Origin: Polaromonas sp. | Lineage (GTDB): Bacteria > Pseudomonadota > Gammaproteobacteria > Burkholderiales > Burkholderiaceae_C | Direction: 5' to 3' | NCBI RefSeq assembly: GCF_029945925.1 | Contig: NZ_JAQSDN010000001.1 | Span: forward strand, 1 to 64,000 | Length of the DNA: 64,000 nt | Shown: positions 26,388 through 35,321 of the stretch, in pieces | Position numbering within the stretch: the stretch's first letter is position 1 | Layout: each line of letters begins with the position of its first letter | Notes under the pieces: model-generated | Seen by the model: only the letters and a program-made list of their open reading frames with translations | Told to the model about the DNA's origin: nothing | Databases searched by the model: none | Program-made: the position numbers and the translations under genes

Positions 26388-27248
26388 TCACACCATCAAC
26401 GCCGCTTGCTGCAATGCAGGCTGCAGCCTGACACGCAACAAAACAAGCAGTTCTGGCAGCGGCACTGCCACCAACTGATTCTTGTTCAGAAAAGCCCGCC
26501 AAAGCGCCTGGCGCGATGTATCAAGGGCAAACTCATCGCTCAACCCGATAGGCAATTCGGTCGGTACGAGCGTGGCGCGACGGTTGAAGGTGGCAGCAAT
26601 GGCCGTTGCCAGGATGTCCGCATCCAGCACCTCGCGCTGCAGCAACACCGACAAGTCCAGGTAGTCTTTCAGCCGGCTGTTGGTCATGCCCAGCAAGGTG
26701 ATGGCGTGGAGCTTTTCGGCAATGACGGTGTACACCGGGTAGGTTTGCAGGCTTGGTGCCGGAAAGTCATCAAGCAGCACCGGGTAGCTGGCCCTGACGG
26801 GACCGGGCGTCACCGCGTCGCCAAAGCCGACATCCACCTGCGTCTTCACGCGCGCACCCGCGAGCTCTGCACTGATGAGCACGCGTGCGCCTGCGTAGCC
26901 GGCCTCCTTGCGAATCTCTTCCGCAGTCACGCTGTCCGGGTCAAAGCGGATGCCGTCCTCATCCACCACCGAGACGATGTCCCTGAACGTCTGCTCAATC
27001 GAAGGAAGGTCGCTGGCGCCAAAGCCCAGCAGGTCAACATCCCGCGTGGGCCGATGCGGCATGTCGTACCAGAGTGTGAAGAGCATCGCGCCCTTGAGCA
27101 AAAAGCGCTCGGCGTGTGCGGACTGGCTCAGGCGGTACAGCAGGCGCTCCAGCGCATAACGAACCAGAACGCCATTGAAGTCCGATTGCTCGGCCTTCGC
27201 CACATTCAGCAGGCGCGCGCGTACCGAGGCAGCCAGATCCTTGCTCAC
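26388..27248 (-). CDS. abiEii: AbiEii-type nucleotidyltransferase toxin, pair 2
   Basis: A 286-residue canonical AbiEii/AbiGii family protein. Visible motifs are FLLKGAMLFTLW (residues 49-60) and RPTRDVDLLG with D70 and D72, a third Asp in KTQVDVGFGD (D139), and the late VIAEKLHAITLLG lysine motif. AbiE systems are Type IV toxin-antitoxin modules that can abort phage infection; the toxin is a bacteriostatic nucleotidyltransferase. It begins at GTG, overlapping the antitoxin stop by 4 bp (GTGA), so synthesis is coupled. Confidence 0.9.
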   Translation of the reverse strand: MSKDLAASVRARLLNVAKAEQSDFNGVLVRYALERLLYRLSQSAHAERFLLKGAMLFTLWYDMPHRPTRDVDLLGFGASDLPSIEQTFRDIVSVVDEDGIRFDPDSVTAEEIRKEAGYAGARVLISAELAGARVKTQVDVGFGDAVTPGPVRASYPVLLDDFPAPSLQTYPVYTVIAEKLHAITLLGMTNSRLKDYLDLSVLLQREVLDADILATAIAATFNRRATLVPTELPIGLSDEFALDTSRQALWRAFLNKNQLVAVPLPELLVLLRVRLQPALQQAALMV

Positions 27249-27850
27249 TCGATCGCCTCGAGGTAAGGGCGCATCACGTTGGCCACGCGGCAGACCTTTG
27301 CGAAGTGCCAGAGCTCATCGGCCGAGGCTTTTTTCTGCGCACGCGCATCACGCAGCGCCTCCAGCGCCACGTCGAGGCCGATCTTGTTGCGGTGCTTGAA
27401 GCAGTCGGCCACGGTTTTGGCCACACCGTACACCTTCAGGGACACCTGGTCGCGCTCAAAAACCTCTATGCCTGCTGCATAAGCCGCGCCGGTGGACTGA
27501 ATCATCTTCACCGGCGGGTAATCGATTTTGGGCACATGGCTGCCACGCGGCATGGCGATCCAGACCTGGCGCGGCAGTTGCGTCGTGATGCCGTGGAACT
27601 GCAACGCGGTGAGCAGGCAAAACACCGCCTGCGGCACCTTGGCCGCGATGGTGGCCAGGCTTTCGTGCTCGGATGCGGGGGTGCCCGGCAGCCGGTACAG
27701 GCCGCGGCCCACTTTTTCGAGTTGGCCGCTGGCAGTCAGCCGCGTCAGCGTCACCCGCGCGGCACCCGTTTCCTTCAGGTCGCCGGGGCGCAGCATGCCC
27801 TTCTGGCGCGCCAGATCAAGGATGCGTTGGCTATGCGTGTCGGTGGGCAT
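27245..27850 (-). CDS. abiEi: AbiEi-type antitoxin and autoregulator, pair 2
   Basis: A 201-residue protein. The N-terminal winged-helix domain is clear: ILDLARQKGMLRPGDLKETG, then VTLTRLTASGQLEKVGRGLYRL. The C-terminal domain (TALQFHGITTQLPRQVWIAMPRG onward, ending in DVALEALRDARAQKKASADELWHFA) is the AbiEi antitoxin domain. In AbiE the antitoxin represses its own promoter by binding inverted repeats and blocks the toxin. A 48-bp two-tier palindrome lies just upstream. Confidence 0.92.
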   Translation of the reverse strand: MPTDTHSQRILDLARQKGMLRPGDLKETGAARVTLTRLTASGQLEKVGRGLYRLPGTPASEHESLATIAAKVPQAVFCLLTALQFHGITTQLPRQVWIAMPRGSHVPKIDYPPVKMIQSTGAAYAAGIEVFERDQVSLKVYGVAKTVADCFKHRNKIGLDVALEALRDARAQKKASADELWHFAKVCRVANVMRPYLEAIE

Positions 27851-28009: not shown

Positions 28010-28046
28010 CCAAACCAAGCCTGAGCCCATGGCGGGCAAGCGCAAG
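28010..28046 (+). repeat. Dispersed intergenic repeat, copy 5, left part (split by the insertion sequence)
   Basis: CCAAACCAAGCCTGAGCCCA, then GGGCAAGCGCAAG, ending exactly at the proposed left end of the insertion sequence. The right part continues at 29456. Joined, they read GCGCAAG + CAGCTACAAATTAAATAG, a normal copy of the repeat. Confidence 0.85.
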
Positions 28047-28137
28047 CAATGGGATGGACGCTCCCACCTTAGCGGCATCGCGATGTGCCAAAGTGGGAGT
28101 GTTTAGCAACCCACTTGAACAGACAGGAGCGTCCGAC

Positions 28138-29172
28138 ATGAAGGTTACAACATTGGGCATTGATCTGGCAAAGAACGTGTTCCAGCTGCACGGGGTCAAC
28201 GAATTTGGCAAACCCGTCATCAAGAAACAATTGAAGCGTGAGCAGATGGCAGCCTTCTTGGTGAACCTGCCGCCGTGCCTGATCGGCATGGAAGCCTGCG
28301 GTAGCGCCCACTACTGGGCGCGCAAGCTCCAAGGCTTCGGTCACACCGTCAAACTGATGGCCCCGCAATTGGTCAAGCCCTACGTCAAAACCAACAAGAA
28401 CGATGCAGCCGATGCCGAGGCGATCTGCGAAGCGGTCGCCCGGCCCAACATGCGCTTTGTGCCGATCAAAAGCGTTGAACAGCAAAGCGTCCTGGCATTG
28501 CACACCGTGCGCCAGGGGTTCGTCAAAGCGCGCACTGCCCAAGCCAACCAGATCCGGGGCTTGCTGTCGGAATTTGGGCTGATCATTCCCCAGGGCATTG
28601 GGCATATTGCAAACCGGGTGCCTGAACTTCTTGAAGACGCCAGCAACGAGCTGCCGGGGGCCTTTCGGCTGCTGGTGCAACGCTTGCTGGATCACTTGAA
28701 AGAGCTTGATGGCCAAGTCAAGGAATTGGAAACCCAGATCGTGAAGTGGCACCGTCAGAGTGAACTGAGCAGCAAACTGGCAGGAGTGCCTGGTATTGGC
28801 CCCATCACCGCCAGCGCCTTGGTGGCCACCATAGGAGACGCCAGGAACTTTGATAACGGCAGGCAGGTGGCGGCCTGGCTGGGCTTGGTGCCCCGGCAGC
28901 ACTCCAGCGGGGGCAAACAAAATCTACTGGGACTCAGCAAGCGCGGGGACATCTACCTGCGCACCTTGCTGATCCACGGTGCCCACTCGGTGATTCACTG
29001 GGAGAGTCGCAAACCCGATTGCTGCAGTTGGGTCAGCGGCGTGCTCAAGCGGCGCAACAAGAATGTGGCGGCCGTTGCGCTGGCCAACAAGAATGCGCGC
29101 ATTGTGTGGGCCTTATTGGCCCATGACAGAGAGTTCCGAGCCGACTACGTGTCCACCAGGGTGGCCGCATAG
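28138..29172 (+). CDS. IS110-family transposase (recombinase)
   Basis: A 344-residue DEDD recombinase. The RuvC-like catalytic tetrad is D9 (GIDLAKN), E52 (GMEACGS), D89 and D92 (NKNDAADAEA). The C-terminal domain has the helix-hairpin-helix LAGVPGIGPITASALVA and the serine motif VPRQHSSGGKQNLLGLSKRGD (S256 or S257). These recombinases use an element-encoded RNA to pair with donor and target DNA. The start at 28138 (ATG) gives the normal family N-terminus. The frame is intact, so the element may be active. Confidence 0.95.
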   Translation: MKVTTLGIDLAKNVFQLHGVNEFGKPVIKKQLKREQMAAFLVNLPPCLIGMEACGSAHYWARKLQGFGHTVKLMAPQLVKPYVKTNKNDAADAEAICEAVARPNMRFVPIKSVEQQSVLALHTVRQGFVKARTAQANQIRGLLSEFGLIIPQGIGHIANRVPELLEDASNELPGAFRLLVQRLLDHLKELDGQVKELETQIVKWHRQSELSSKLAGVPGIGPITASALVATIGDARNFDNGRQVAAWLGLVPRQHSSGGKQNLLGLSKRGDIYLRTLLIHGAHSVIHWESRKPDCCSWVSGVLKRRNKNVAAVALANKNARIVWALLAHDREFRADYVSTRVAA

Positions 29173-29219
29173 TCAAGTCGGTCAGTAGAGTCAACGAAAA
29201 CAACGAAGCAGGGAGAACT

Positions 29220-29440
29220 GAACCACCGATTGCTCAGGCGATCATGAAGTGATGGCAAGACAGGTCAGACCGTGGTTGGCAAAGCCCGCTATAGCTGCTG
29301 CACCCGGAGTGCGCGCAAGCAATCGAGGAGCCAACCAGCGAATCCCATCAGGGACAGTGACCCAAAGTCACAAGAAAAGTCCGAATGTACGGGTGCAATC
29401 TTTACCTTCGAGTCAGCATGAATTGAAAGCTTGGCATACC
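29220..29440 (+). ncRNA. Candidate bridge (seek) RNA of the insertion sequence
   Basis: This noncoding stretch lies between transposase stop and right end, where IS1111-group elements encode their guide RNA. An 8-bp stem TGGTTGGC (29273-29280) / GCCAACCA (29330-29337) closes a 49-nt loop. In the loop, ATAGCTGCT (29291-29299) is the reverse complement of the right half of the target repeat (AGCAGCTAT), and GCGCAAGCA (29313-29321) equals its left half. Further on, ATCCCAT (29342-29348) is the reverse complement of the element's left end (ATGGGAT), and ATGTAC (29385-29390) equals its right end (ATGTAC), flanking a small hairpin GTGAC/GTCAC. The outer limits of the RNA are guesses. Confidence 0.72.
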
Positions 29441-29455
29441 GGGAGCGTCCATGTA

Positions 29456-29477
29456 CAGCTACAAATTAAATAGCAGC
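29456..29477 (+). repeat. Dispersed intergenic repeat, copy 5, right part
   Basis: CAGCTACAAATTAAATAGCA directly after the proposed right end of the insertion sequence; it continues the repeat interrupted at 28046. Confidence 0.83.
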
Positions 29478-32972: not shown

Positions 32973-35321
32973 GTGGATCCATCAACCATCAACAAAATCG
33001 TCTCCTTCATTTGGGGCATTGCAGACGATGTGCTGCGCGACCTGTTCAGGCGCGGTAAGTATCCTGACGTCATCCTGCCCATGTTCGTCATCCGACGTAT
33101 GGACTCAGTGCTCGAATCAACCAAGCAAAGTGTGCTGGACGTCAAAAAGATGTTGGACGATGCTGGCATCACCGAACAGCGCGCGGCCCTCTGCGACGAA
33201 GCGGGACAGGCGTTTTACAACACCTCCCGCTTCACCTTGCGCGATCTGCAATCGCGCGGCAACCGGCAGCAATTGCTGGCCGACTTTGAGGACTACCTCA
33301 ATGGTTTTTCACCCAATGTGCTGGACATCATCGAGAACTTCAAGTTCCGCAACCAGCTCTCCACCCTGTCCAAAGCCGACGCCCTGGGCACGCTGATCAA
33401 CAAGTTTCTGGACCCCGACATTGACCTGTCGCCTGCCGGCATCGACAACCACTCCATGGGCACGGTGTTTGAAGAACTGGTGCGCAAGTTCAACGAAGAA
33501 AACAACGAAGAGGCCGGTGAACACTGGACCCCGCGCGACGCCGTGCGGCTGATGGCCGACCTGGTGTTCCTGCCTATCGAATCACAGCTCAAGTCCGGCA
33601 GCTACCTGCTGTTTGACGACGCCTGCGGCACAGGCGGCATGCTCACCGTGGCCGAAGAAACGCTGGCCGCCATTGCCACCAAGCGCGGCCTGCACATCAA
33701 GAGTCACCTCTACGGGCAAGAGATCAACCCCGAAACCTACGCCATCTGCAAAGCCGACATGCTGCTCAAGGGCGAAGGCGAAAACGCTGATCACATCGTT
33801 GGCGGTGCAGAGTGGTCCACCCTGTCCAACGATGCCTTCCCTGCGCAAGAGTTCGACTTCATGCTGGCCAACCCACCGTATGGAAAGAGCTGGAAGAAAG
33901 ACCTGGAGGCCATGGGTGGCAAAGACGGCATGCGCGACCCCCGCTTCAAGGTCACGCACCAAGGCGAAGAGCTGTCATTGGTCACCCGTTCCAGCGACGG
34001 CCAGATGCTGTTCCTGGTCAACATGGCGTCCAAGATGAACCACAAGTCGGCCTTGGGCAGCCGCATTGCCGAGGTGCACAACGGCAGTTCGCTGTTTACC
34101 GGCGATGCGGGCCAGGGCGAAAGCAACATCCGCCGCTGGATCATTGAAAACGACTGGCTGGAGGCCATCGTCGCCCTGCCGCTCAACCTGTTTTACAACA
34201 CCGGCATTGCCACCTACATCTGGGTGCTGTCCAACCGCAAGGCCGCGCACCGCAAGGGCCAGGTGCAGTTGATCGATGCCAGCCAGTGGTTCAAACCCCT
34301 GCGCAAAAATCTGGGCAAGAAAAACTGCGAACTCAGCGCCGAAGACATCTCCCGCATCACCCAAACCTTTTTCGACTTTGCCCAAACGCCCGAGTCCAAA
34401 ATATTCCCCAACGCCGCTTTTGGCTACTGGAAAGTGGTGGTGGAGCGCCCGCTGCGCCTGCACAGCCAGTTGTCATTGCCGCGCATTGAAGGCCTGCGCT
34501 TTGCCAGCGGTGAGGAAGCCATCCGCCGCGCGCTGGTCGATGAATTGGGCCAAGCCCTGTTCAGCGACTTCAGCAAGGTGGAAAAGGCCCTGGAAAAGCG
34601 TCTGGCCGAATGGGGCAACGACGATGCCGAGGACGATGCGGACGACAGCGACGCAGTCGACGACGATGACGAAGCCAGCACCGCCAAGGCCAAAAAAGGC
34701 CTGCCCGAAAAAACCAAACGCAAGCTGCTGGACGCCACCACCTGGGCGCGCGATGCCCGCCTCTACCAGGTCGCCAACGAGTTGCGCGCTGCCCTGGGCA
34801 GCCACCTGTTTGAAGACCACAACGACTTCCGCGACCAGGTGGCCGTCCACCTCAAGCAGAGCCAAACCAAACTCTCGGCCCCCGACCTTAAAACCATCCT
34901 CAAGGCCGTGAGCTGGCGGGCTGAGGCCGCGCCGCCCGTGCGCGCCAAGGTGCACAAACTTGCCAAAGGCAAACTCAAAGCCAGGGCCGCCCCGCTGCAC
35001 GGCCTGTACGACGCGGTAGTAGACGGCAAACCCGTGCTGGTGGAATACGAGCCCGACCCCGACCTGCGCGACACCGAGCAGGTGCCCCTGCTGGAAGACG
35101 GTGGCATAGCCGCCTTTATCCAGCGCGAAGTGCAGCCCTACACGCCTGACGCGTGGGTGAAGCTGGACGCCACCAAGGTGGGCTACGAGGTCAGCTTCAC
35201 CCGCCACTTCTACAAACCCCAGCCCCTGCGCACGCTGGACGAAATTGCCACCGACATACTGGCCATTGAGAAAGAGGCCGATGGCCTGCTGGACGGGCTG
35301 CTGAAGGGAGTTTCAGCATGA
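32973..35321 (+). CDS. hsdM: Type I restriction-modification system, methyltransferase subunit HsdM
   Basis: A 782-residue adenine methyltransferase subunit that, with HsdS, methylates the recognition site. The N-terminal HsdM domain spans about residues 5-160. SAM motif I is DDACGTGGM (215-223) and motif IV is NPPYG (300-304). Length is well above the usual 500 or so residues; the extra C-terminal part begins after a very acidic run near 548-569 (DDAEDDADDSDAVDDDDE) and ends with a helical domain. The start is GTG at 32973, chosen because INKIVSFIWGIADDVLRDLF begins right after it, with no earlier in-frame start and only a weak ribosome site. Confidence 0.94.
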   Translation: MDPSTINKIVSFIWGIADDVLRDLFRRGKYPDVILPMFVIRRMDSVLESTKQSVLDVKKMLDDAGITEQRAALCDEAGQAFYNTSRFTLRDLQSRGNRQQLLADFEDYLNGFSPNVLDIIENFKFRNQLSTLSKADALGTLINKFLDPDIDLSPAGIDNHSMGTVFEELVRKFNEENNEEAGEHWTPRDAVRLMADLVFLPIESQLKSGSYLLFDDACGTGGMLTVAEETLAAIATKRGLHIKSHLYGQEINPETYAICKADMLLKGEGENADHIVGGAEWSTLSNDAFPAQEFDFMLANPPYGKSWKKDLEAMGGKDGMRDPRFKVTHQGEELSLVTRSSDGQMLFLVNMASKMNHKSALGSRIAEVHNGSSLFTGDAGQGESNIRRWIIENDWLEAIVALPLNLFYNTGIATYIWVLSNRKAAHRKGQVQLIDASQWFKPLRKNLGKKNCELSAEDISRITQTFFDFAQTPESKIFPNAAFGYWKVVVERPLRLHSQLSLPRIEGLRFASGEEAIRRALVDELGQALFSDFSKVEKALEKRLAEWGNDDAEDDADDSDAVDDDDEASTAKAKKGLPEKTKRKLLDATTWARDARLYQVANELRAALGSHLFEDHNDFRDQVAVHLKQSQTKLSAPDLKTILKAVSWRAEAAPPVRAKVHKLAKGKLKARAAPLHGLYDAVVDGKPVLVEYEPDPDLRDTEQVPLLEDGGIAAFIQREVQPYTPDAWVKLDATKVGYEVSFTRHFYKPQPLRTLDEIATDILAIEKEADGLLDGLLKGVSA

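What the first reader, a model, noticed from the sequence alone, without database searches (positions are those of the whole stretch)
29220..29440. Candidate bridge RNA programmed for the host's own dispersed repeat
Seen: an 8-bp stem (29273-29280/29330-29337) closes a 49-nt loop that contains ATAGCTGCT, the reverse complement of the right half of the dispersed repeat, and GCGCAAGCA, its left half. Downstream, ATCCCAT is the reverse complement of the element's left end and ATGTAC equals its right end. The order (complement of right half, then left half) is the same in both sets. Known: IS110/IS1111 elements are guided by an RNA whose loops pair with both strands of target and donor. Inference: this element's RNA targets the intergenic repeat, which gives it many neutral landing sites across the genome.
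Basis: partly seen in the sequence, partly recalled or inferred. Interest (0 to 1): 0.87.

Follow-up and report, generated by a model that had tools for sequence, protein, structure and literature searches.

The report
Jumping gene aimed at host repeat
This is a small jumping gene whose own guide RNA is matched to a short repeat scattered through its host's genome; the mechanism is known, but here the guide also differs between two hosts largely in step with each host's own version of the repeat.

Summary
Window 28047-29455 is a complete IS1111-group insertion sequence: 344-aa DEDD transposase, 12-bp subterminal inverted repeats, 7-bp and 3-bp outer extensions. It splits one copy of a dispersed repeat at GCGCAAG|CAGCTA. 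The RNA region 29222-29412 shows strong compensatory change across 64 distinct sequences, window included. Across 66 distinct insertion sites, RNA 29315-29320 repeats the left target and core, and 29290-29297 is complementary to the right target; summed match 871, against at most 580 in 20,000 re-pairings. The right-end triplet equals RNA 29387-29389 in 71 of 73 elements. So this is an IS1111 seek/bridge RNA programmed for a host repeat; REP-targeting precedents (ISPa11, IS621) make it a new member of a known kind. Extra result: the closest relative fetched (88% transposase) sits at the same point of its host's repeat. That host has GGGAG|CAGCTA 187 times and GCAAG|CAGCTA 7 times; ours 2 and 71. 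The left guides differ at both positions where the repeats differ, and at one more. 'Many neutral landing sites' is only partly supported: the element is single-copy, and neutrality is untested.

The parts
28047..29455 (+). Complete IS1111-group insertion sequence, 1409 bp; flanks rejoin to the repeat GCGCAAG|CAGCTACAAATT with no target duplication
   Evidence: by the rule, 76 of 81 elements (window included) have such ends, 73 of them with at least 10 of 12 inverted-repeat bases
28047..28053 (+). Left terminal extension CAATGGG (its first two bases CA equal the target core)
28054..28065 (+). Left subterminal inverted repeat ATGGACGCTCCC
28138..29172 (+). DEDD transposase, 344 aa (PF01548 + PF02371; NCBIfam NF033542 IS110 family RNA-guided transposase)
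29222..29412 (+). Conserved guide (seek/bridge) RNA region; true transcript ends unknown
   Evidence: 36 pairs, 97.7% of cells paired, 244 cells with both sides changed against a mean of 61.6 in shuffles
29273..29337 (+). Target-binding stem-loop: stem 29273-29280/29330-29337 around both target guides, with an inner hairpin at 29300-29312 between them
   Evidence: helices 4 to 6
29290..29297 (+). Right target guide TATAGCTG, pairs with target +8 to +1 (top strand)
29313..29321 (+). Left target guide plus core GCGCAAG-CA, identical to the target's left half and core (would pair with the bottom strand); clear co-variation at 29315-29320
29342..29348 (+). Left donor guide ATCCCAT, complement of the left end ATGGGAT; co-varies only in part
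29385..29390 (+). Right donor guide ATGTAC; triplet 29387-29389 equals the last three bases of the element in 71 of 73 elements (window included, near-identical copies not removed)
29431..29436 (+). TTGGCA: -35 half of a promoter that would be completed only in the circular form (TTGGCA-17-TACAAT across the joined ends)
   Evidence: at least 10/12 in 51 of 73 elements, 1 of 3650 shuffles; in the linear element no promoter-like site was found
29441..29452 (+). Right subterminal inverted repeat GGGAGCGTCCAT
29453..29455 (+). Right terminal extension GTA
28040..28046 (+). Left half of the interrupted dispersed repeat (GCGCAAG)
29456..29475 (+). Right half of the interrupted dispersed repeat (CAGCTACAAATTAAATAGCA)

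Best explanation
An IS1111-group insertion sequence whose downstream non-coding region makes a guide RNA. One loop carries the complement of the target's right half (29290-29297) and a copy of its left half plus the CA core (29313-29321). A second loop carries matching segments for the element's own ends. Transposase and RNA would bring the circular element and the target together and exchange strands around CA, giving orientation-specific insertion without duplication. The target is a repeat dispersed through the host genome. The guide's left half matches the host's own version of the repeat, and in the closest relative fetched it differs largely in step with that relative's host. Shown here: element anatomy, exact insertion point, conserved RNA structure, co-variation of target and donor guides with sites and ends, and abundance of matching host repeats. 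Inferred: transcription, RNA processing, protein binding, the circular intermediate, and catalysis.
For: Anatomy and exact split of the repeat. Protein family. Guide/target match over 66 distinct sites. RNA structure with compensatory change. Donor triplet 71 of 73. One element from viral contigs, L188, has a loop that by eye largely matches its own site. Repeat abundance. Host matching: PBB3 repeat GCGGGAG in 27 of 28 fetched copies, all chosen by GGGAGCAGCTA; whole-genome counts 187 against 7 there and 2 against 71 here; left-guide differences 29316 C>G and 29317 A>G are the same as those between the repeats at -4 and -3.
Against: No transcript or activity data. The single-sequence fold is not better than shuffles. 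Own site mismatches the guide at +7. Single copy in the genome. Ten of 66 sites score below 12 of 15, including L031, whose guide is the same as L034's but whose site matches poorly; L030 and L045 may have misplaced ends. The left donor guide co-varies only in part. Host matching rests on two elements, one of them in a MAG; a third left-guide difference (29314, -6) does not follow the repeats.
Confidence: 0.93

Rival explanations
1. The transposase itself recognises the repeat, for example its small palindrome, as a structure, and the RNA region is an untranslated tail whose resemblance to the repeat is accidental.
For: The repeat has a short inverted pair around its right half (GCTAT...ATAGC), and REP-like structures are known IS targets (PMC11208160, passages).
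Against: In relatives with 69-88% identical transposases the loop changes together with quite different targets; many of those sites are not this repeat.
Confidence: 0.03
2. The guide match to the host repeat is passive: the element carries a fixed guide, and only arrivals whose guide happens to match an abundant repeat persist. The two guide variants were sorted by host and did not adapt to it.
For: Only two elements with this kind of right guide are known here; L002 and this element are only 80.4% identical overall, so the transition was not observed; one left-guide change (-6) does not follow the repeats.
Against: The RNA backbones are close (22 differences in 191), and two of the three left-guide changes fall on the two positions where the host repeats differ, with the same letters.
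Confidence: 0.4
3. The element copied its guide from the repeat by gene conversion, so that the similarity records descent and not function.
For: Left guide plus core and repeat are identical over 9 bases.
Against: The right guide is a reverse complement and the left a direct copy, separated by a hairpin, the same layout as in relatives with unrelated targets.
Confidence: 0.04

Closest known systems
IS1111-family seekRNA elements (ISEc11, ISKpn4, ISPst6, ISPa11; PMC11187229)
   Same: Downstream non-coding region, 11-13 bp sTIR with 7/3 extensions, no target duplication, complement of the top strand first and bottom-strand match second
   Different: Target is a Burkholderiales dispersed repeat; here the donor-end guides are also seen to co-vary with the ends; no RNA or activity data for this element
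ISPa11 (targets P. aeruginosa REP; PMC11187229)
   Same: IS1111-family element with a guide for a dispersed host repeat
   Different: Different repeat; the ISPa11 RNA was sequenced after co-purification with its transposase, this one is only inferred
IS621 and bridge RNAs of the IS110 group (PMC11208160, passages)
   Same: Two-loop RNA with left and right guides for both target and donor around a dinucleotide core; IS621 is reported to target REP elements (PMC11187229, section 13, found no clear consensus around its 920 sites)
   Different: IS110-group RNA mostly lies upstream of the gene and has the reverse order of target guides; no long sTIR
Natural redirection ISEc11/ISXne4 and ISEc21/ISMch6 (PMC11187229, passages)
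   Same: Relatives whose guide and target have changed together
   Different: Those are different or modified targets; here the position in the repeat stays and the guide shifts between two hosts' versions of one repeat

Membership tests
IS1111 group | DEDD (PF01548) plus PF02371 transposase of 330-350 aa with GL-P----S(t)G motif | tested here: met
   344 aa; GLVPRQHSSG read in the translation
IS1111 group | Subterminal inverted repeats of 11-13 bp with 7-bp left and 3-bp right extensions | tested here: met
   12 bp, CAATGGG and GTA
IS1111 group | Longer non-coding region downstream of the gene | tested here: met
   283 bp from stop codon to element end, 91 bp upstream of the start
IS1111 group | No target duplication; site restored by joining the flanks | tested here: met
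   GCGCAAG + CAGCTA restores the repeat core found 66 times exact in the genome list; no uninterrupted copy of this very locus was sought
IS1111 seekRNA / bridge RNA | RNA segments matching both target strands, top-strand complement first | tested here: met
IS1111 seekRNA / bridge RNA | Conserved RNA secondary structure | tested here: met
   (97.7% of cells paired; 28.0-42.9% when slid; the structure was derived from the same alignment)
IS1111 seekRNA / bridge RNA | Donor-end guides | tested here: met
   right triplet 71 of 73; left guide co-varies only in part
[quoted passage not shown] needed for transposition | not testable with these tools
   no transcript or bench data
IS110 group (IS621 type) | Guide RNA upstream of the gene, no long sTIR | tested here: not met
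   RNA is downstream, 12-bp sTIR present
Known Rfam RNA family | Match to an Rfam 15 model at gathering score | tested here: not met
   0 matches in the window

The most novel reading that the evidence does not exclude
The guide RNA of a mobile element evolves in step with its host's own dispersed repeat: as the repeat drifts between host lineages, the left guide changes at the same positions, so that the element keeps tens to hundreds of matching landing sites in each host.
Probability: 0.45. Interest if true: 0.65.

Novelty: new member of a known kind. Interest (0 to 1): 0.45.

Why it matters
It gives a natural two-host pair in which an RNA-guided transposon follows the sequence of its target repeat, so guide/target co-evolution can be tested directly. 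The same set of relatives provides 66 distinct guide/target pairs plus donor-guide co-variation for one IS1111 clade, which points to the programmable positions without experiment.

Tried and rejected
Whether targeting multi-copy sequence is a rule for the whole clade: tested for one further case, the ACGAC|CGGGA site of L003 and L005, and not supported (CCACGACCGGGA: 0 and 2 copies in the hosts of L003 and L005, below the reversed controls of 8 and 12). Other relatives do sit near mobile elements: L013 lies directly upstream of IS66-family genes, and 4 of 8 searched loci carry group II intron matches (L028, L051, L062, L066); no count was made over all 66. Protein-only recognition was rejected because the loop and the target change together. 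A search for more elements with the same right guide found none convincing: 399 family genomes gave the own element and one 2-mismatch hit in G369 that looks like chance, 399 order genomes, of which only 12 are of our family (own included), gave only the own element, viral contigs none with an exact pattern. Searches used a pattern with one base too many, and one search found nothing even in the own genome; both are void and were repeated correctly. The plasmid search found 493 records with related DNA; their targets were not studied. Of the four viral-contig relatives only L188 gave readable ends on both sides together with a readable loop. Rows dropped: of 80 fetched relatives plus the window, 76 have the inverted repeat by the rule (none for L011, L048, L049, L064, L069); 70 have both flanks and at least 10 of 12 repeat bases (dropped: L016, L065, L066, L067, L068, L079); 66 have distinct targets.

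Full report
Observation. The element that contains them runs from 28047 to 29455 (1409 bp). Its ends are CAATGGG-ATGGACGCTCCC and GGGAGCGTCCAT-GTA, the 7-bp and 3-bp extensions and subterminal repeats that mark the IS1111 family in PMC11187229 (seen: parts 1 and 2 of 9 of the text, passages, and section 13). The flanks rejoin to GCGCAAG|CAGCTACAAATT. The gene at 28138-29172 encodes a 344-aa transposase with PF01548 and PF02371, named by NCBIfam as IS110 family RNA-guided transposase.

The target is a dispersed repeat. GCGCAAGCAGCTA with up to one mismatch occurs 95 + 142 times in the 4.78-Mb assembly of 71 contigs, against 7 + 10 for the reversed pattern; 66 copies in the list are exact. From 30 fetched copies, all chosen by that exact 13-mer, the consensus around it is TCAAATcGGCCTcCAGCCCTTatgggACGgGCGCAAGCAGCTATcAATTtAATAGCAAaT. 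The repeat is not confined to this genome: 29 of 120 sampled family genomes (own included) hold the exact 14-mer GCGCAAGCAGCTAT, up to 151 copies in one; the reversed control appears once in all 120. Copies tend to avoid long open frames: 21 of 30 lie in a frame of at least 150 codons, against 279 of 300 random points in the same loci. This is weak support for an intergenic location.

Is the RNA a guide? I fetched 80 relatives from species genomes; 75 of them plus the window have recognisable ends, 70 of these 76 have both flanks and a good inverted repeat, with 66 distinct targets. In the alignment the RNA positions equivalent to 29315-29319 are identical to target positions -5 to -1 in 0.79, 0.83, 0.92, 0.97 and 0.91 of sites, against 0.26-0.36 when targets are exchanged; 29320 equals +1 in 0.88 against 0.44, and 29321 equals +2 in 0.91 against 0.80. 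Positions 29290-29297 are complementary to +8 to +1, with 0.58-0.74 against 0.25-0.34 for the seven pairs that the call lists; +2 (29296) is not in its table. Weaker signals appear off register and elsewhere, such as 29390 and 29344 with +1 (0.88 and 0.82 against 0.44), as expected for a shared core and for related sequences. Allowing the best register, the left guide with core matches 6.23 of 7 and the right 6.97 of 8, against 3.68 and 4.16; the summed score is 871 against at most 580 in 20,000 permutations; 56 of 66 reach at least 12 of 15 against 2.8% of mismatched pairings; the own target is the best, ties allowed, for 49 of 66. The window element scores 7 of 7 and 7 of 8. One element from a separate collection (viral contigs, L188) shows a loop that, by eye, largely matches its own site.

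Results against. Ten of 66 sites score below 12. L031 carries the same guide letters as L034, which matches 15 of 15, yet its own site matches only 2 of 7 and 5 of 8. L030 and L045 score 3 and 3, and their right-end triplets are the kind seen in the two exceptions of the donor test, so their ends may be misplaced. L018 and L019 match their sites only in part. The window's own site has C at +7 where the guide calls for T; T is found in 25 of 30 fetched repeat copies, so the guide fits the usual repeat better there than the copy in which the element sits.

Structure and donor side. Alone, the region folds no better than shuffles (z 0.15). In an alignment of 64 distinct sequences the consensus fold has 97.7% of cells paired, 244 cells with both sides changed against a mean of 61.6 in shuffles, and falls to 28.0-42.9% paired when slid by 1 to 3 columns; the fold was derived from this alignment, which favours it in the sliding control. 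The stem that closes the target loop changes on both sides in 6 of 7 pairs. The second loop carries donor guides: the last three bases of the element (GTA, ATA, GCA, CTA or ACA) equal RNA 29387-29389 in 71 of 73 elements, near-identical copies not removed, while the left donor guide co-varies only in part. Joining the ends as in a circle creates TTGGCA-17-TACAAT; at least 10 of 12 promoter bases are found in 51 of 73 elements and in 1 of 3650 shuffles, in line with the junction promoter reported for this family (PMC11187229).

Host matching. The closest relative fetched, L002 (88% transposase identity; a Burkholderiales MAG, PBB3), is inserted at the same point of a repeat of the same kind. 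In that genome the right half with up to 3 mismatches occurs 21 + 28 times, against 0 + 1 for the control; another such copy lies on the contig that holds the L002 right junction (C99), which speaks against contamination. The left half differs: GGGAGCAGCTA occurs 187 times in PBB3 (control 3) and 2 times in our genome (control 4); GCAAGCAGCTA occurs 7 times (control 1) and 71 times (control 1). Of 28 distinct PBB3 copies, all fetched by GGGAGCAGCTA, 27 read GCGGGAG. The two RNAs differ at 22 of 191 positions. Within the left guide they differ at 29314, 29316 and 29317; the last two (C>G and A>G) are exactly the differences between GCGCAAG and GCGGGAG, while 29314 (-6, C>T) does not follow the repeats. 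The right guides differ at +7 and +8: the L002 guide calls for CT there, seen in 10 of 28 PBB3 copies; ours calls for TA, seen in 2 of 30 own copies, with T at +7 in 25 of 30. By the 11-mer counts each left guide would find 71 or 187 sites at home and 7 or 2 in the other host. This is two elements only, and whether the guide adapted or the element was sorted by host is open.

Limits on the ecological claim. The element is single-copy. In the 399 sampled family genomes no other element sits at GCAAG|CAATGGG; of the 27 other matches within two mismatches, 22 have GTAAG or GTATG as left half. For one relative with that target, L013, the neighbouring sequence encodes IS66-family proteins. In 399 family genomes and 399 order genomes no other convincing RNA with the TAGCTG right guide was found, and none in viral contigs by exact pattern. 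'Neutral' landing was not tested.

Literature. Guide RNAs of this family, natural redirection (ISEc11/ISXne4, ISEc21/ISMch6) and repeat targeting (ISPa11 to REP) are in PMC11187229; bridge RNA, IS621 and REP targeting are in PMC11208160 (passages). PMC11208158 was seen in listings only. A search for Comamonadaceae with dispersed repeat and intergenic found no paper. Three searches, on IS110/IS1111/seekRNA, on IS1111 with REP and on bridge RNA with covariation, listed 20 of 30, 4 of 4 and 12 of 12 papers, none with a title or abstract start that describes guides following host repeat versions. I did not read these papers in full, so this is not proof of absence.

Verdict. A well-supported new member of the IS1111 seekRNA/bridge RNA kind, with one fresh and testable feature, the match of guide to host repeat version.

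Noticed in passing
L013 3310-5014, L020 3290-5014; also L008, L012, L021, L114, L126: A common target of related elements, GTAAG or GTATG|CGTCCGG, has mostly unrelated left flanks and a similar right flank; L013 continues into IS66-family genes (PF05717, PF03050) and L020 into a PF01527 gene, so these elements probably sit in the tips of IS66-type elements.
   Followed up: partly
L028, L051, L062, L066 (hits); L029, L036, L041, L053 (none): Rfam finds group II intron matches in 4 of 8 searched loci, directly before the transposase match in L066; several insertion sites look by eye like group II intron ends. The interrupted sites were not modelled.
   Followed up: partly
L032, L047: Site AACCAG|TGGTACTTCGGC looks by eye like a conserved stretch (KGNQ|WYFG) of IS5-type transposase genes; recalled, not tested.
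   Followed up: no
own genome G000:C15:61591-61821 (L141): A second IS110-type transposase with what looks by eye like an uninterrupted copy of the dispersed repeat nearby; its ends and target were not worked out.
   Followed up: no
window 3926-43244: Eight copies of the repeat at 24 or more of 38 consensus bases, all on the + strand; in the whole genome the two strands have 95 and 142 core copies with up to one mismatch.
   Followed up: no
window 26388-27850 and 32973-35321: AbiEi/AbiEii-type pair just upstream of the element, and a type I methyltransferase gene downstream.
   Followed up: partly
PBB3 MAG (G399): 187 copies of GGGAGCAGCTA: a differently spelled version of the same repeat, so the repeat itself differs by lineage.
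   Followed up: partly
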